Source of the DNA: Methanolinea sp.
GTDB taxonomy: Archaea; Halobacteriota; Methanomicrobia; Methanomicrobiales; Methanospirillaceae
Assembly: GCA_024518585.1 (NCBI GenBank)
Contig: JANIHI010000016.1
Coordinates: 1 to 35,981 of the forward strand
DNA: 35,981 bases
Direction of reading: 5' to 3'
The notes beneath the pieces were generated by a model. The model was not told the DNA's origin. It saw only the letters and a program-made list of their open reading frames with translations, and searched no databases. This document shows positions 1 through 14,787 of this stretch, piece after piece; position 1 is the first letter of the stretch, and each line of letters opens with the position of its first letter. The position numbers and the translations under genes were made by a program.

Positions 1-425
1 CGAGCCCCGCGGTCGTCGATGGCCTTGTGTACGTGGGGAGCAACGACTGGTATGTCTACGCGCTCAACGCCACGACCGGAGAAAAGATCTGGAGTACGTA
101 CACAAACGGCGAGGTCACGTCGAGCCCTGCGGTGGTGGGTGGCGTTGTGTATGTGGGGAGTAACGATCGGCAGGTCTACGCGCTCAATGCTGTGACCGGA
201 GAAAAGATCTGGAGCACGTACACGAACGGGGAGGTTAGGTCGAGCCCCGCGGTCGTCGGTGGGGTTGTGTACGTGGGGAGTAACGACCGGTATGTCTACG
301 CGCTCAATGCCACGACCGGAGAAAAGATCTGGAGCACGTACACGAACGGCGAGGTCACGTCGAGCCCTGCCGTGGTGGATGGCGTTGTCTATGTCGGGAG
401 CAATGACCACAGGGTCTATGCCCTT
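1..425 (+). repeat. 120-bp in-frame tandem repeat encoding PQQ blades
   Basis: Units begin at 1, 121, 241 and 361, each opening with CGAGCCC-GC-GT-GT. The period is exactly 120 bp (40 codons, one propeller blade). Copies differ at few positions, much more alike than the blades at 930-2080, so they look recently duplicated or homogenised. The array continues leftward out of the window. Confidence 0.9.
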
Positions 426-3400
426 GGCACCAAGTTCCCCGTCCCCTCGTTTACCGCGTCCCCGGCGAGCGGGCCCTACCCCCTGACCGTCACCTTTACC
501 GATACATCCACGGGGGACATCACGGGCTGGCACTGGGACTTTGGGGACGGGAGTTCCAGTACCCTTCAAAACCCTGTCCACACCTACCGCAGTCCCGGGA
601 TCTATCCGGTCAACCTGACGGTGACCGGGCCGGCAGGGACACGAAGCCTCGTTGTCCCGGACTCTGTCAGGGTCACTTTTGACTTTTCCGGGACGCCGCG
701 AAGCGGACAACCTCCCCTCACCATTACCTTCACCGACACCCTCCCGGCAGACACAACGGGCAGGAACTGGGACTTCGGGGACGGACAGACGGGCACCGGG
801 CAGAACCCCGTCCATACCTATACGGCCCCGGGTTCCTTCACCGTGACGCTGAATGCGACCGGTCCCGGCTGGGCGGCGACACTCGAAAAGAAGAATTACA
901 TCAGCATGGATGTCATCCCGGCCCCAACCGTGCGCTGGAAAGTCCGGGAAGGTATTACATCGATAGGCTCGCCCCCGGTGATCGACAGCGGGACCGCCTA
1001 CGTTGACGGCGGAACAACTCTTTTTGCCATTGATACCCGGACCGGGACGGAACGCTGGCGTTTTGCGACCGGTGCAGAATGTTCGATTTCAGAAGTCTAC
1101 GGGGGAGTGGTGTTTGTGCGGGCCGGGACAACCCTGTATGCCATCGATTCCCAGAGCGGAGGGGAAAAATGGCGCTTTTCCGCCCCTGAAAAGCTCGGCC
1201 GGCCGTCCCGGTACATAGGGGTCATCTGCCTCAACTCAGGGAATACGGTCTATGGTATTGACCTGTCCACAGGATCCGAGAAATGGCATGTCACCAAGAC
1301 CGAACCCTTCACGGAGGTGACGATTGGTGAGGGGATCGTATCAGGGGATCTCTACGCAGGCTCTGGAAAGACCCTCTATGCCCTCCAGACGCATACCGGC
1401 AGGGAACGGTGGCACAGGGACTATAATGATATCGTGGGGTTGCAGCCGATAGCATCAGACAACCTAGTTATTGCCGGCACGCGGCCGGCGAAAACGGAAG
1501 AGCTACCCTATGACCGCTGGACGTTCCACGCGGTTGACATGAGGGATGGCAAGGAACTCTGGACCACGAGGGTTTATACAGACCCTGTCGGGTATCCACA
1601 GATTGTTGATGGGACCTTCCTGTTTGTGAGTAATGAGAGGTCTAGGGCAGCTCTTCGCGCCATAGATCTCCTGACCGGAAAGGAACTGTGGTCCTATAGC
1701 GAAAGACCTGATTACAGTAGTGATGCGAAGTACATCGCGTCAGGAGATACGATACTCTCCTGTTTTACGATTCACTATACAAAATGCAGTGCAATTTATT
1801 GCAGTGATTGGGATTCCTGGACACTGGTTTCGCTGGATAGGAAGACCGGCAGGAAATTGTGGGAAATGGACCTCTCCGGTGCAGGGGTCAAAGGGCTCCC
1901 CGTCGTTGCCCACGATATCGCGTACATTGGTCTTAAGAAAACAAACAATGGAAACATCCTGGCCTTACATATGAATGGCACCACCGTGTGGTATTCACAA
2001 ATCGGAGGGGGCGATTTTGGTTTCCCTGCGTTCTCCAACGGTGTGGTGTATGGAAAAGGATCCGACGGATACTTCTACGCGGTCGGGAACTCGCTCTCGT
2101 TCTCCGCGACCCCCACCTTCGGGATGGCGCCATTAACCGTGACATTCCGTGACACTACTCCTCAAAAAACAACGGGATGGTCGTGGTCTTTCGGCGATGG
2201 GACAACGGGCACCGGGCAGAACCCCGTCCACACCTACACGCGTCCCGGGACCTATACCGTGAGGTTTTCGGCATGGGATGCGGCCGGGTCCGTCAGCCAC
2301 GAGGAACCTGAATGCATCAGGGTGGATACCAACCTCACATTTTCGCGGATCCAACCAGGTTATGGTATCAGGGGAACAACAGCCCCGGTCACGATCTTTG
2401 GCGGCAATTTCACGGGAGACCTATCAGTTACCCTCACGAGGGGATCGCGTGTCATCCCGGTCACCAACAGTGTAGTGGTGGACAACGCGACCATCTCGGG
2501 CACGCTTGCAATTCCCGGCGACGCACCAATCGGACCCTACGATCTCTCCATCGCCAGGGCATCGGACGGCAATATCCTAAAGGTGCAGGGCGCGTTCATG
2601 GTCCTCCAGTACCCTCCTCCGATCGTTGCGTCTGTTGATCCCTCCTCAACAAAAGCCGGTACCCTGCAGCAGTTCACTCTCAACGGGAGCAACTTCCAGC
2701 TCGGTGCGACTGTGGTCTTTACGAATATAACCGGAGCGGAACTTACCACAACCGCAGTCAAAAACAGCGAGTCCGAGATCATCCTGACCGCTACGTTCCC
2801 GGTCAACGGCGCTGGGCCATGGAATGTCACGGTCACCAACCCTGATGGCGGGACTTCGACGCTTCCGCATGCACTCGATGTGATGCCGTCCAACGTGGAG
2901 ACTCCGCCACCGACTGTCAACTCGGTCAGCCCGGCATGGGGGACTGCCGGCACGTCGCTCGCGATGTCGATCTCCGGTTCGGGCTTTACCCGCGGGTCGT
3001 CGGTGAAACTGTGCAGGGGAGCGTATGAACTTCCCGGCTCCCAGGTCGTTATCCTGAAGCCGACACAGATGCGTGCCACGGTCACGGTCCCTGGCAACGC
3101 CGTCCCCGGACTGTATGACTTCGTGGTCATCAACGGGGAGGGACAGGCAGGGGTGCTCCCGGGCGCGGTTACAATCGGGAACAGGACTTGCCCGATACTC
3201 TCCAGGATCACGCCCGGTACGATGACTGCCGGGACCACAACGGCCTTTTCGCTCACGGGGGACCGTTTCCGGCAAGGGGCGGCGGTTATCTTTTCGAAAA
3301 CCCCCGGCGGGGTCATGATGGCTGACGTGACCAGCGTCAATGAAAAGCAGATAAAAGGGACACTGAGCATCCCGGAGGGAACGGACACCGGGACATGGAG

Positions 3401-3761
3401 TGTCATGGTCATAAACCCCGATGGTGGCACCGGGAGGATTCCTGATGCCGTGACCGTGACAAGCCCATCGGGGGACGGCGGGAGCGGACCTTCTGTCACC
3501 TCTGTGAAACCTGCGAGCGGCTCGGCAGGAAAGACCGTCGGCCTGCTCATCGCGGGCGAGGGTTTCACGAAGGGTTCTTCGGTCAGCATCAGGGACGAGG
3601 GATATGAGGTCACGGCGAGCAGGGTCCTGACAATGGATCCAACAAAGCTGTTTGCTATCCTGAAGATCCCTGCCAATGCAACCCCCGGTGCGTATGACCT
3701 GGTGGTCACCGACAGCGGGGGCAGGTCAGGGACGCTCCCCTGCGGTTTTTCGGTCCTCTGA
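1..3761 (+). CDS. Large PQQ-propeller / PKD / IPT-repeat surface protein (5' truncated)
   Basis: The reading frame is open from base 3 with no start in the window, so the N-terminus and any signal peptide lie upstream; the GTG at 27 is inside a repeat and is not the start. Order of domains: about 3.5 PQQ-like beta-propeller blades (bases 3-425, each with the pattern SSPAVV-GVVYVGSND-VYALN-TGEKIW), two PKD domains (about 430-690 and 690-905, motifs WDFGDG and NPVHTY), a second more diverged PQQ propeller (about 930-2080), a third PKD domain (about 2090-2330, WSFGDG), then five IPT/TIG-like immunoglobulin domains (about 2335-3755, motifs like PSSTKAG, GSGFTRGSSV, NPDGG). Such proteins are typically extracellular adhesins or S-layer-associated proteins of methanogens; no enzymatic residues are seen. 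It ends GFSVL, without a PGF-CTERM tail or C-terminal membrane anchor. The specific ligand is unknown. Confidence 0.85.
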   Translation, partial: SPAVVDGLVYVGSNDWYVYALNATTGEKIWSTYTNGEVTSSPAVVGGVVYVGSNDRQVYALNAVTGEKIWSTYTNGEVRSSPAVVGGVVYVGSNDRYVYALNATTGEKIWSTYTNGEVTSSPAVVDGVVYVGSNDHRVYALGTKFPVPSFTASPASGPYPLTVTFTDTSTGDITGWHWDFGDGSSSTLQNPVHTYRSPGIYPVNLTVTGPAGTRSLVVPDSVRVTFDFSGTPRSGQPPLTITFTDTLPADTTGRNWDFGDGQTGTGQNPVHTYTAPGSFTVTLNATGPGWAATLEKKNYISMDVIPAPTVRWKVREGITSIGSPPVIDSGTAYVDGGTTLFAIDTRTGTERWRFATGAECSISEVYGGVVFVRAGTTLYAIDSQSGGEKWRFSAPEKLGRPSRYIGVICLNSGNTVYGIDLSTGSEKWHVTKTEPFTEVTIGEGIVSGDLYAGSGKTLYALQTHTGRERWHRDYNDIVGLQPIASDNLVIAGTRPAKTEELPYDRWTFHAVDMRDGKELWTTRVYTDPVGYPQIVDGTFLFVSNERSRAALRAIDLLTGKELWSYSERPDYSSDAKYIASGDTILSCFTIHYTKCSAIYCSDWDSWTLVSLDRKTGRKLWEMDLSGAGVKGLPVVAHDIAYIGLKKTNNGNILALHMNGTTVWYSQIGGGDFGFPAFSNGVVYGKGSDGYFYAVGNSLSFSATPTFGMAPLTVTFRDTTPQKTTGWSWSFGDGTTGTGQNPVHTYTRPGTYTVRFSAWDAAGSVSHEEPECIRVDTNLTFSRIQPGYGIRGTTAPVTIFGGNFTGDLSVTLTRGSRVIPVTNSVVVDNATISGTLAIPGDAPIGPYDLSIARASDGNILKVQGAFMVLQYPPPIVASVDPSSTKAGTLQQFTLNGSNFQLGATVVFTNITGAELTTTAVKNSESEIILTATFPVNGAGPWNVTVTNPDGGTSTLPHALDVMPSNVETPPPTVNSVSPAWGTAGTSLAMSISGSGFTRGSSVKLCRGAYELPGSQVVILKPTQMRATVTVPGNAVPGLYDFVVINGEGQAGVLPGAVTIGNRTCPILSRITPGTMTAGTTTAFSLTGDRFRQGAAVIFSKTPGGVMMADVTSVNEKQIKGTLSIPEGTDTGTWSVMVINPDGGTGRIPDAVTVTSPSGDGGSGPSVTSVKPASGSAGKTVGLLIAGEGFTKGSSVSIRDEGYEVTASRVLTMDPTKLFAILKIPANATPGAYDLVVTDSGGRSGTLPCGFSVL

Positions 3762-9050: not shown

Positions 9051-9934
9051 AGGAACTCCACCGCCCCGTGGCTGTCGAACCGGGCCCGGCGCCTCATGTG
9101 GACGGACTCCGGGCCCCCGCCCTTCGATGCCTGGACCAGGATGTCGGCGATCTCCTCCTCCATGCATGCCGCAATCCCGATGACACTCGTCGTCACCCGC
9201 GGGTTGACGTCTACAACGTAGGGCCTGTCTGCAAGGACGATATCGATCCCCACGTACCCCTGGCACCCCAGGACCTGGAGAGCCCGGACGGCCGTCCCGA
9301 CGACCTCACCGTGCCGGGGATGGTCAAGGGGGGTCTCCCCGCCCCTGTAATGGAACTCTCCGGAAGGGCCGACACGGACGTCCTGGCGGTTCACCGCGAG
9401 GAGGAGGGGCGGCTTCCCGGTGTAGTACGAACACGCATCGCCGACGACCCTGCTTCCGACCAGGCTCACGCTCAAATTTTCCCCGTCAATGAACTCCTGG
9501 GCGGTCTCGCCCGGACCAGGCTTCTCATCGGAGAGCCGGACATTGACCGACCCGCACCCTGCAACGGGTTTGATGACCTGTTTCCCGGGTGACGGGGCTC
9601 CCGGAACCGGGATACCATGGCGTGCCAGGATGCGGCCGCACTGGACCTTGTCAGCGCAGATAGCCGCGTTCATGCTCCCGCAGCCGACGTTATGCGTGAG
9701 ACGCTCCAGAACGGAGGTATAGGAAAAGAGGAGGTGGTCGGGGGCGATCACGAGCCCGACGTCGCATTCAGGGGCCAGTCGGCGGATCTCGCCGAGGAAA
9801 TCGCTGCCGTCCGGTGTGACAACCTCGTACCCGCACCGGGAAAAGCTCCGGGAGAGGACGTCGAGCATCGCTTTCCCCTCGGGAGCAAGGCGGGGGTCGT
9901 GGAACGTTGCATACTCCGCCAGGAGCGCTTTCAT
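9047..9934 (-). CDS. mfnD: ATP-grasp ligase, probable tyramine-glutamate ligase MfnD
   Basis: 295 residues. The ATP-grasp fold is visible: ADK (95-97) at the entry of the domain, VIKPVAGCGSVNV (120-132) with the ATP-contacting lysine 122 and glycine-rich loop, EFIDGENLSVSLV (147-159), and the metal-binding end YVGIDIVL with VVDVNPRVTTS (Asp231, Asp242, Asn244). MfnD of methanogens (MJ0815) ligates glutamate to tyramine in methanofuran synthesis; coupling here to the MfnF-like gene (4-bp overlap) argues for that assignment. The start ATG at 9932-9934 is chosen because upstream codons in frame look non-coding; AAGGGG lies about 17 bases before it, which is long, and two nearer ATGs are out of frame. 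Other ATP-grasp ligases cannot be excluded by motif alone. It is divergent from surE (81-bp gap). Confidence 0.7.
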   Translation of the reverse strand: MKALLAEYATFHDPRLAPEGKAMLDVLSRSFSRCGYEVVTPDGSDFLGEIRRLAPECDVGLVIAPDHLLFSYTSVLERLTHNVGCGSMNAAICADKVQCGRILARHGIPVPGAPSPGKQVIKPVAGCGSVNVRLSDEKPGPGETAQEFIDGENLSVSLVGSRVVGDACSYYTGKPPLLLAVNRQDVRVGPSGEFHYRGGETPLDHPRHGEVVGTAVRALQVLGCQGYVGIDIVLADRPYVVDVNPRVTTSVIGIAACMEEEIADILVQASKGGGPESVHMRRRARFDSHGAVEFL

Positions 9935-10015
9935 GCCATGTACATTGGTTCCCCTTTCAGATAGGCATGACGATCGATCAACTATTTCTCCCCTTCCTCC
10001 CAATGGGATGGTGAC

Positions 10016-10819
10016 ATGAAACCCCGGGTCCTCCTCACCAACGATGACGGGATCAATTCTGCAGGTCTCTGGGCTGCCTACGAAGCCCTTTCCCCCTTCT
10101 CGGACGTGACCGTTGTGGCACCGGCAACCCAGCAGAGTGCTGTGGGGCGATCGATCTCCATCTTTGAGCCGATCCGGGCACACGAGGTGGAGATGAACGG
10201 TGTCACTGCCTATGCTGTCGGTGGAAAGCCGACCGATGCTGTCATCATCGGGCTCTATGCGCTGGACATCCGCCCCGCGATGGTCGTGAGCGGGATCAAC
10301 ATCGGGGAGAACCTCTCGTTTGAGTCCATCATGACGTCCGGCACCGTCGGAGCAGCACTCGAGGCGGCAAACCAGGGGACCCGTGCAATCGCATTCTCCC
10401 TCCAGGTGGAGGACCAGGGCGACAAGTTCGGCGACCCGCGGAGGCACCGGCAGAGTTTCGAGCCCTCAAAGAGGGTCGTGAGCGAGGTATGCCGGACATT
10501 CCTCGAGAGGCCCTTTCCCCGCGGCGTCGACGTCCTGAACGTGAACATCCCATCGGCTGTGAAGGGCGGGTACGAGATTACGCGCCTCGCGGAGAAGCTC
10601 TTCGCAACAGGCGTGGAAAAGAGGCTTGACCCCCGGGGAAGGCCGTACTTCTGGATCAATGGCCCCCTCATAGCCGATGCGGGAGAGGGGACGGATGTGC
10701 ATGCCATCCGGAAGGGAAACATCTCCCTGACCCCGATTACCCTTGACTGCACGGCAGCGGGTGCAAAGGATGAACTATCCGCTATCTTTTCCCATAACCG
10801 GGAGGGAAAGAGGAGATGA
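10016..10819 (+). CDS. surE: 5'/3'-nucleotidase SurE
   Basis: 267 residues. SurE family metal-dependent phosphatase acting on nucleoside monophosphates in the cytoplasm. The metal site NDDG is at residues 9-12 (Asp10, Asp11), with Ser41 in APATQQSAVG and Asn95 in VSGINIGEN completing the usual ligands; GGKPTDAV (69-76) and TSGTVGAALEA (107-117) are family motifs, the latter with Thr where YSGTV is common. Length is typical. It starts at ATG 10016 behind GGGATGGTGA. Its TGA overlaps the rpiA ATG by four bases (ATGA), so the two form a coupled nucleotide/pentose-phosphate unit. Confidence 0.93.
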   Translation: MKPRVLLTNDDGINSAGLWAAYEALSPFSDVTVVAPATQQSAVGRSISIFEPIRAHEVEMNGVTAYAVGGKPTDAVIIGLYALDIRPAMVVSGINIGENLSFESIMTSGTVGAALEAANQGTRAIAFSLQVEDQGDKFGDPRRHRQSFEPSKRVVSEVCRTFLERPFPRGVDVLNVNIPSAVKGGYEITRLAEKLFATGVEKRLDPRGRPYFWINGPLIADAGEGTDVHAIRKGNISLTPITLDCTAAGAKDELSAIFSHNREGKRR

Positions 10820-12718: not shown

Positions 12719-13561
12719 ATGAAACCTGTCCGGGGACAATCCCAGGGTCTCAACGAGGTCGTTGCATCCATCCTCATGGTCGTCCTTGTCATCGCTCTTG
12801 CGATCATAATCGGGGGTATTGTTTTTGGCTATATCACAATCCAGCCCAAGTCGGCCTACATCCCTCCACGGGTGGAGATGGTTGACTATGCAGGCAAGCA
12901 GGCAATAAGTCTCTATTCCCGGGGTGGGGATAACGCAGCCCTTGACCCGGCCCTGGAGGGAAGCTATGTCCTCGAGATATACCTGGATACAGACCAGGGG
13001 ACATTCAAGGTGATACCGGATGACTCTGCCACAACATGGAACCCGGGCCAGACAATTTACATTTACTACAACCAGTCCCTCTCGCAATACCGCACGGGGT
13101 ATGATGTACCTCAATTCGTGCCGGATGCTTTCCCGGCGGGAAATATCCTCCTCCGGGTCGTTGACCAGAGGGCAAAGTTGCTGGTGTTCAAGGAGGGGAT
13201 AGCGGTGGGTGGCGGTGGGACAGGCATGCCGAAACCGATGGGGACACCTTCATGTGGAACCATTACAGGGAGATTGTATAATTACCAAAACAACAGCGGG
13301 CTTACGGGTTGGACTGTTCAATACCGGTCTAGGAAAAATCAGGGAGACCCATGGTCGCAGTGGACAGGCACAATAACTGGAACAGGAGGAACGTATACAT
13401 TTTCCAACCTCAATTATCAGCCCGCCACCTTTTATGAAGTAGGCGTCGTAATTCAACCAGGGTGGAATTTGCAACAGCCCCAATCCAATTACACATTTTT
13501 ATTAAATCCGGGACAACAATGCTATAGTACTGGAGTTGATTTCGGCGTTCAAAAATCGTAG
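12719..13561 (+). CDS. Archaeal type IV pilin-like protein with C-terminal beta domain
   Basis: 280 residues. The N-terminus is a class III prepilin signal: a short polar leader (MKPVRGQSQG), then LNEVVASILM and a hydrophobic helix VVLVIALAIIIGGIVFGY (21-38). Cleavage by the prepilin peptidase is expected near Gly10. This is the Pilin_N/DUF1628 pattern of euryarchaea. Residues about 45-165 form a beta-rich pilin-type domain; a GGGGTG linker (near 165) is followed by a second domain (about 175-280) starting CGTITGRLYNYQNNSGLTGW that resembles Cna-B/SdrD-like or carboxypeptidase-regulatory-like beta sandwiches. The DNA from about 13250 onward is visibly richer in A/T than the first part, suggesting a domain added by recombination. 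No pilus assembly genes are nearby. Probably a minor pilin or a surface protein anchored by its N-terminal helix. Confidence 0.8.
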   Translation: MKPVRGQSQGLNEVVASILMVVLVIALAIIIGGIVFGYITIQPKSAYIPPRVEMVDYAGKQAISLYSRGGDNAALDPALEGSYVLEIYLDTDQGTFKVIPDDSATTWNPGQTIYIYYNQSLSQYRTGYDVPQFVPDAFPAGNILLRVVDQRAKLLVFKEGIAVGGGGTGMPKPMGTPSCGTITGRLYNYQNNSGLTGWTVQYRSRKNQGDPWSQWTGTITGTGGTYTFSNLNYQPATFYEVGVVIQPGWNLQQPQSNYTFLLNPGQQCYSTGVDFGVQKS

Positions 13562-13698
13562 AAAGGGTATAATAGGGGGCATAAATCAAGAATCACCACT
13601 CTTGTCGGGTAAGAACTCTTTTGATTATTTAAAATTTATACAATTTTTTAGATGAAAAAGAAACATCAGGTCCTAACTTGCTTCCCAAGCACATACCC
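13562..13698. other. AT-rich spacer with weak terminator-like dyad
   Basis: This part of the non-coding stretch is AT-rich. AATCAA (13584-13589) and TTGATT (13621-13626) can pair and a run of six T lies near 13643-13648, a possible end point for the pilin transcript. A reading frame starting at 13652 runs straight into the repeats and is not regarded as a gene. Confidence 0.3.
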
Positions 13699-14360
13699 TC
13701 TCGCCGCATGGGGTACCACAAAGGCGGGGCGTCAGCCCCGAGAGCGTCTGAGAAGGGGAGTGCAGTCTTGTCTTCTGCCCCGAGGGGGAGAATCCCCCTC
13801 CGGACCACCCCCTGGTGAGGATGGTGTGCGGGCAGGGTTGATTGGGGCGGTCATCAGGTGTGATGCATCACGGTCCTTCTCGCCGCATGGGGTACCACAA
13901 AGGCGGGGCGTCAGCCCCGAGAGCGTCTGAGTGTGGAAGTGCGGTTTCATAAATTGACCGGAGGGGGAGAATCCCCCTCCGGACCACCCCCTGGTGAGGA
14001 TGGTGTGCGGGCAGGGTTGATTGGGGCGGTCATCAGGTGTTATGCAGCACGGTCCTTCTCGCCGCATGGGGTGCCACAGCGGCGGGGCGTCAGCCCCGAG
14101 AGCGTCTGAGAAGGGGAGTGCAGTCTTGTCTTCTGCCCCGAGGGGGAGAATCCCCCTCCGGACCACCCCCTGGTGAGGATGGTGTGCGGGCAGGGTTGAT
14201 TGGGCACTTGTGATGTTCAGCCTACCATACCATTCCCTCTCACCATAAGGGGTGCCGCAGTGGCGGGGCAGTGGGTTCCGTCCCGAGAGGTTTGATGGAT
14301 ATGAGTTCTATCTGGTGCAGTGGAATCTTATGTGATGTAGTGACCGGAGGGAAGCAGGAG
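13699..14360. repeat. Non-coding tandem array of 179-bp units (three good copies, one decayed)
   Basis: Copies start at 13699, 13878 and 14057 (TCTCGCCGCATGGGGT), exactly 179 bp apart, with a degraded fourth from 14238 to about 14360. Each good unit has a 6-bp stem CGGGGC-GTCA-GCCCCG (13725-13740 in copy 1) and a strong G/C hairpin GAGGGGGA-GAA-TCCCCCTC (13782-13800); in copy 2 the second stem extends to 11 perfect pairs. A block of about 30 bp between the two hairpins is the same in copies 1 and 3 but quite different, at the same length, in copy 2. Frames open through the array but translate to low-complexity Pro/Gly/Arg sequence and are treated as spurious. Function unknown. Confidence 0.85.
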
Positions 14361-14475: not shown

Positions 14476-14787
14476 TCAATCGTATTCGCGCCACGTGTGC
14501 CCGCACTCGCAGCAGCGGAAGAACCTGACCTCACTCTCATCAGCAGCCCGGAGCTGGCGGAGCCACCAGAAGGCGAGGTTATGCTCGCACTTGGGACACT
14601 TGACCGCAATGGTCGGGAGAGTGCGGACAGATCCCTCCTCCTCGACGATCACAATCTCCTTCTCGCGGCGTGACTTTGTGATCTGCATCTGGTCGTTCTT
14701 GTTAATCTTCCTGATGTATCCGCATTTCCGGCATTTCAACTGGCCAGCCGATGAGATCATGAGACTTCCGCATTCCGGACAGAACAT
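14476..14787 (-). CDS. tfs: Transcription factor S (TFIIS/RPB9-like transcript cleavage factor)
   Basis: 103 residues. Stimulates RNA cleavage by backtracked archaeal RNA polymerase. It has an N-terminal zinc ribbon (Cys3, Cys6, Cys19, Cys22; FCPECGSLM and KCRKCGY) and a C-terminal TFIIS-type ribbon (Cys64, Cys67, Cys92, Cys95; KCPKCEHN and RCCECGHTWREY). The catalytic acidic tip Asp83-Glu84 in RAADESEVRFF is intact, so this is an active cleavage factor rather than an inhibitory paralogue. Length is typical. No strong ribosome-binding site is seen before the ATG at 14787, so it may be leaderless. It is divergent from artA (142-bp gap). Confidence 0.94.
   Translation of the reverse strand: MFCPECGSLMISSAGQLKCRKCGYIRKINKNDQMQITKSRREKEIVIVEEEGSVRTLPTIAVKCPKCEHNLAFWWLRQLRAADESEVRFFRCCECGHTWREYD

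What the first reader, a model, noticed from the sequence alone, without database searches (positions are those of the whole stretch)
13699..14360. Non-coding tandem array of 179-bp units with two hairpins and an exchangeable core
Three near-identical units at exact 179-bp spacing plus one decayed unit. The outer parts, including a stem with a GTCA tetraloop and a very stable G/C hairpin, are almost invariant. The roughly 30-bp block between the hairpins is shared by copies 1 and 3 but replaced at equal length in copy 2, where the second hairpin grows to 11 perfect pairs through matching changes on the left arm. This looks like selection on structure rather than on coding, with copy conversion. 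It may be a repeat family dispersed in the genome, a structured RNA, or a protein-binding array.
Basis: seen in the sequence. Interest (0 to 1): 0.65.

Follow-up and report, generated by a model that had tools for sequence, protein, structure and literature searches.

The report
Tandem palindromic transposon-derived repeats, not RNA
The array is a local cluster of a repeat family, built from a folding DNA palindrome, that is scattered through methanogens of one family; in sister genera the same block sits inside a small parasitic transposon, so it is most likely mobile-element-derived DNA and not a working RNA.

Summary
Three units sit at 179-bp spacing (13699-14204) with a decayed fourth, both hairpins are present, and a ~29-bp block is shared by copies 1 and 3 but not 2. 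The family is large: 95 profile hits in the Methanolinea loci fetched, and covariance-model hits in 43 of 108 genomes of the host family. In two sister genera the module is single-copy inside ~265-bp elements with terminal inverted repeats GGCTTTGTTGA(A/C)A and 8-bp target duplications, i.e. MITEs. Methanolinea arrays lack those ends, are presence/absence-variable at an orthologous locus, cluster by genome rather than by locus, and favour convergent gene pairs. The stems covary strongly, but G.U and A.C mispairs are about equally common (146 vs 163), which argues against a functional RNA on one strand. Best reading: a MITE-derived palindromic module amplified in tandem, with arms kept alike at DNA level. 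No autonomous partner, Y1 transposase or matching Rfam family was found. I rate it a new variant of a known kind, of modest interest.

The parts
13679..14351 (+). whole array: a half module, three modules, and the first bases of a further one; lies between convergent genes
13679..13765 (+). leading half module (right half only)
   Evidence: covariance-model hit 13679-13748, 36 bits; profile hit starts 13699
13774..13944 (+). module 1 (left arm, loop, right arm)
   Evidence: extraction; covariance-model hit 13780-13927, 114.8 bits
13953..14123 (+). module 2
   Evidence: covariance-model hit 13958-14106, 136.5 bits
14132..14310 (+). module 3, right half decayed
   Evidence: covariance-model hit 14138-14293, 90.5 bits
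13958..13982 (+). G/C hairpin P1 of module 2, 11 perfect pairs; weaker equivalents at about 13779-13803 and 14137-14161
   Evidence: sequence; family-wide helix 1, 91.6% paired
13905..13918 (+). GTCA-loop hairpin P4; equivalents at 13726-13739 and 14084-14097
   Evidence: sequence; helix 6, 89% paired
   Evidence: all copy-2-specific differences fall at unit positions 55-83; arrays elsewhere begin and end in this zone
14342..14351 (+). start of a further module (GACCGGAGGG), truncated
   Evidence: sequence

Best explanation
The array is a TIR-less tandem amplification of a ~170-bp palindromic module that belongs to a family-wide set of MITE-type non-autonomous mobile repeats. SHOWN: the same module is single-copy inside ~265-bp elements with terminal inverted repeats and 8-bp target duplications in two sister genera; in Methanolinea it forms tandem arrays without those ends; copies are most alike within a genome whatever their locus; and pairing is kept with no preference for G.U over A.C on either strand. 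INFERRED: ancestral copies were moved in trans by a DDE transposase with IS6-like ends that is now missing or undetected. In Methanolinea the module then multiplied by duplication, unequal crossing-over and gene conversion. Its arms are kept complementary by DNA-level processes acting on either strand, such as template switching at quasi-palindromes and copying from young source copies. It accumulates between convergent genes because insertions there do least harm. A side effect on transcription ends is possible but not required.
For: Family: 95 nhmmer hits in the fetched loci; DNA matches in 15 of 101 relatives; covariance-model matches in 43 of 108 family genomes, many of them dispersed single copies in G019 and G043. 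MITE form: the TIR pattern occurs 54 times in G019 and 140 times in G043, against 3 and 0 for the reversed control, but only 1 and 3 times in Methanolinea G000 and G011. Flank identity peaks at exactly 8 bp, 0.62 against 0.38 for mispaired flanks, n = 14. Presence/absence: arrays at the pilin-TFS locus in G000, G003 and G006; a decayed or half copy in G012 and G004; none found in G007, G008 and G011. Concerted evolution: 15 G006 copies from four loci form one clade, SH-aLRT 95. Strand symmetry: 146 G.U against 163 A.C, p = 0.36. Orientation: 28 convergent, 19 tandem, 8 divergent; convergent enriched at p = 0.0008 and divergent depleted at p = 0.0005.
Against: No autonomous element with these ends was found: PF13610 is absent from the eight genomes checked first and from all 13 Methanolinea genomes, and the PF01609 transposase loci read lack the TIR. 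The Methanolinea arrays have no TIR or target duplications, so their descent from the MITE form rests on module homology; the reverse (a MITE captured an existing module) is possible. Arrays persist at orthologous loci in several species, which could mean function.
Confidence: 0.68

Rival explanations
1. A structured non-coding RNA made as a polycistronic array, each module folding into a P1 hairpin, a long P2 stem, and P3/P4 hairpins.
For: 29 of 40 pairs have compensatory changes, 0 of 500 shuffles as high. Two subfamilies swap both arms of P2. Module fold z averages -2.2.
Against: The reverse strand folds as well (z -2.3). G.U 146 against A.C 163, while the crude tRNA control shows 22 G.U and no A.C (a control biased by ARAGORN's own scoring). 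No Rfam match. Absent at orthologous sites. Covariation was counted on an alignment fitted to the model.
Confidence: 0.1
2. A domesticated DNA structure: cruciform-forming arrays at convergent gene ends act as binding sites or topological or transcriptional barriers.
For: Enriched in convergent and depleted in divergent intergenic regions; strand-symmetric conservation of pairing; arrays persist at shared loci in several species.
Against: Orthologous sites lack it in sister species. The bias is also what harmful insertion near promoters would give. No cognate protein was sought or identified.
Confidence: 0.14
3. An integron-like cassette array with the module as the recombination site and the junctions as cassettes.
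For: Arrays begin and end at module boundaries. One junction in G000:C26 holds a hicAB toxin-antitoxin pair. The module is a long imperfect hairpin like attC.
Against: Nearly all junctions are far too short for a gene. Module ends read CGGTC/GACCG, not the attC core-site motifs. No integrase search was run. The hicAB pair looks decayed.
Confidence: 0.04
4. REP/BIME-type repeats moved by a Y1 (RAYT) transposase.
For: Palindromic, extragenic, biased to convergent regions like known REPs (PMC3733652).
Against: No Y1_Tnp (PF01797) hit in eight genomes, while the controls ring; the module is 4-8 times longer than a REP; sister-genus copies have TIRs and target duplications.
Confidence: 0.02

Closest known systems
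MITEs of the IS6 family (8-bp duplications, GG tips; two MITEs of 227 and 336 bp listed in PMC7986276)
   Same: Sister-genus copies are ~265 bp, have GGCT(C/T)TGTTGA(A/C)A ends and 8-bp duplications, occur in many copies and lie almost entirely between genes
   Different: No PF13610 transposase in the genomes carrying the high-copy forms; the ends lack a clear CAAA motif; the interior is an elaborate conserved palindrome; Methanolinea arrays have no such ends
REP/BIME elements, including CGTC-tagged REPs (PMC3733652)
   Same: Extragenic palindromes, biased to convergent and downstream positions, a GC hairpin followed by GCGTC
   Different: ~170 bp instead of 20-40 bp; head-to-tail arrays; no Y1 transposase; that survey's REPs were found in bacteria
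Integron attC arrays / SCI cassettes
   Same: Long imperfect hairpins at regular spacing, one hicAB between modules
   Different: Junctions almost always gene-free; no attC core motifs; no integrase shown

Membership tests
MITE (tested on sister-genus copies) | terminal inverted repeats | tested here: met
   GGCTYTGTTGAMAT 54 and 140 hits against 3 and 0 controls in G019 and G043
MITE (tested on sister-genus copies) | target-site duplication | tested here: met
   flank identity 0.62 at 8 bp against 0.38 mispaired, n=14, degraded
MITE (tested on the window array) | terminal inverted repeats at array or module ends | tested here: not met
   1 and 3 pattern hits in whole genomes G000 and G011, none at the arrays
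MITE | autonomous partner with the same ends | tested here: not met
   extinct or undetected
REP/RAYT | Y1 transposase in the genome | tested here: not met
   PF01797 absent from eight genomes
Structured ncRNA | compensatory changes in stems | tested here: met
   on a model-fitted alignment
Structured ncRNA | G.U tolerated over A.C on the RNA strand | tested here: not met
   146 against 163; also 61:52 and 49:105 in two other sets
Structured ncRNA | known Rfam family | tested here: not met
   only a sub-threshold match, E 0.31
Structured ncRNA | transcription | not testable with these tools
   no RNA-seq available
Integron attC array | cassettes with genes between sites | tested here: not met
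   one hicAB among more than 70 junctions
Integron attC array | integron integrase | not tested
   no search run

The most novel reading that the evidence does not exclude
The arrays are domesticated: strand-symmetric DNA cruciforms placed at convergent gene ends that serve as a chromosomal or transcriptional boundary in methanogens, or that capture genes such as hicAB by an unknown hairpin recombinase.
Probability: 0.1. Interest if true: 0.65.

Novelty: new variant of a known kind. Interest (0 to 1): 0.36.

Why it matters
It describes a palindromic mobile-repeat family spread through a family of methanogens, for which I found no earlier description in the papers searched. It also gives a worked example of strong stem covariation without the wobble asymmetry expected of an RNA. 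That pattern is a trap for RNA discovery by covariation alone and a testable sign of DNA-level palindrome maintenance. The arrays also break many draft assemblies at repeats.

Tried and rejected
RNA reading: tested through covariation, strand energy, wobble asymmetry and Rfam; not supported. REP/RAYT: no Y1 transposase. IS6 and IS5 partners: PF13610, PF13737 and PF01609 searched; some genes found, none with matching ends. In Methanoregula-like genomes two PF13610 loci each show one GGTTCTGTTAACTT end, too thin to use. Module phase test by arm energies (upstream against downstream partner) was uninformative because copies are alike; the phase was settled by array ends and by single copies. RNAalifold on the MAFFT alignment of all modules failed because C-runs misaligned. 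A first target-duplication script mixed orientations and was replaced. A sequence-based tRNA wobble control was noisy (23 G.U, 11 A.C); the ARAGORN one is biased by its scoring. The exact unit pattern had no match in viral contigs.

Full report
OBSERVATION. The tandem array exists as described: period 179, 13699-14204, 2.8 copies, with a decayed further copy to 14351. Pairwise identities and the 29-bp block that sets copy 2 apart were recomputed. Both hairpins are there; the 11-pair form in copy 2 is the common form in the family, so copies 1 and 3 carry the weakened version.

PHASE. Iterated nhmmer over related loci gave 95 hits. Many arrays begin near profile position 75 and end near position 74-92, so the natural unit runs from the G/C hairpin P1 (GACCGGAGGGGG..CCCCCTCC) through a variable loop to the GTCA hairpin P4 and GAGTGCGG. 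Single copies in other genera contain exactly this stretch. The 'exchangeable core' is therefore the junction between two modules (listed).

FAMILY. By DNA similarity the family occurs in 15 of 101 relatives, mostly the same genus. The genus is Methanolinea, from the titles of named records with an exact conserved pattern. A covariance model from ten modules finds it in 43 of 108 genomes of the host family. Copy counts there are lower bounds, because only 28 candidates per genome were scored.

MITE FORM. In G019 and G043 (two other genera of the family) copies are dispersed, mostly single and on both strands. Many sit in elements of about 265 bp whose ends are GGCTTTGTTGA(A/C)A and its reverse complement. 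The end pattern occurs 54 and 140 times, against 3 and 0 for the reversed-pattern control, and only 1 and 3 times in Methanolinea G000 and G011. Taking the 14 copies with two good ends, chosen without looking at the flanks, flank identity peaks at exactly 8 bases (0.62 against 0.38 for mispaired flanks). L159 has TATTAATC on both sides. Eight-bp duplications, GG tips and a TGTT motif resemble the IS6 family (PMC7986276). That affinity is a lead only: no IS6-type transposase was found in those genomes, nor any PF01609 locus with these ends.

STRUCTURE. Modules share P1, a long P2 stem (..CCACCCCC-GTGTGAG-GATAGG / CCTATC-GCCACAC-GGGGTG..), a small P3 and P4. Two subfamilies differ on both arms of P2 (TGTGAGGATAG/CTATCGCCACA against ATACGCGATAG/CTATCGCGTTT); native arms pair better than shuffled partners (-23.2 against -20.2 +/- 0.47 kcal/mol, relatedness not corrected). 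On the model-fitted alignment 29 of 40 pairs show two-sided changes.

WHY NOT RNA. If one strand were a working RNA, G.U should be tolerated far more than A.C on that strand. Counts are 146 G.U and 163 A.C (p = 0.36), although the model favours G.U on the + strand. Two further sets give 61:52 and 49:105. Neither strand folds better (z -2.2 and -2.3). tRNAs of the host genome give 22:0, a control biased because ARAGORN scores pairing. Rfam gives nothing. Strand-symmetric covariation fits processes that make inverted-repeat arms alike, such as template switching (PMC8604942, title and abstract only). That step is inference.

TURNOVER. At the window's locus (archaeal pilin gene 12719-13561, TFIIS-type zinc-ribbon gene 14476-14787) arrays occur in G000, G003 and G006, a decayed copy in G012, a lone hairpin half in G004, and nothing recognisable in G007, G008 or G011. 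G003's copies lie at a contig end. In a quick tree the 15 modules of G006 from four loci form one clade (SH-aLRT 95) instead of grouping with orthologous loci, which means concerted evolution or repeated re-seeding.

POSITION. With a home-made hexamer gene finder, elements lie in convergent regions 28 times, tandem 19, divergent 8, against about 16/25/32 for the remaining intergenic regions obtained by subtraction (p = 0.0008 and 0.0005). This resembles REPs (PMC3733652) and is also what selection against promoter insertions gives.

VERDICT. MITE-related palindromic module, amplified in tandem in Methanolinea, arms kept alike at DNA level. Shown: family, module boundaries, TIRs and target duplications in sister genera, presence/absence, within-genome similarity, strand symmetry. 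Inferred: direction of descent, transposase type, template switching, lack of function. The window array itself is not filed as a MITE, because the terminal repeats were tested and not found there.

Noticed in passing
L030 (G000:C26) 9850-10274: A hicA toxin gene (no clear start) and a short hicB-like antitoxin remnant sit between two modules, flanked by half modules; cassette-like, but only one case seen.
   Followed up: partly
L030 9518-9552 and 10409-10443; also L073, L077, L144: A second hairpin type, CCGCAGTTGGGGCT..GCCCCAACTGC, replaces the upper part of some modules; one copy (L144) has GTTGGATC/GATCCAAC, again matched on both arms.
   Followed up: no
L121, L134, L138 (G019): Some G019 copies end in a different flanking sequence (..AATGGGGGAACAACCCCTAATATAAGGAGATTT) shared between loci, perhaps another repeat fused to the element.
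   Followed up: no
L059, L065, L066, L068, L069, L070: Several Methanolinea draft contigs begin or end inside these arrays, so copy numbers are probably underestimated and assemblies break there.
   Followed up: no
window 1-408: A 120-bp tandem repeat inside a large open reading frame (27-3761).
   Followed up: no
L059 8772-9182, L062 4092-4487, window 12719-13561: Type IV pilin-like genes (Pilin_N, found for the L059 and window genes; L062 by sequence likeness) lie near several arrays; the window locus also has TBP next door.
   Followed up: no
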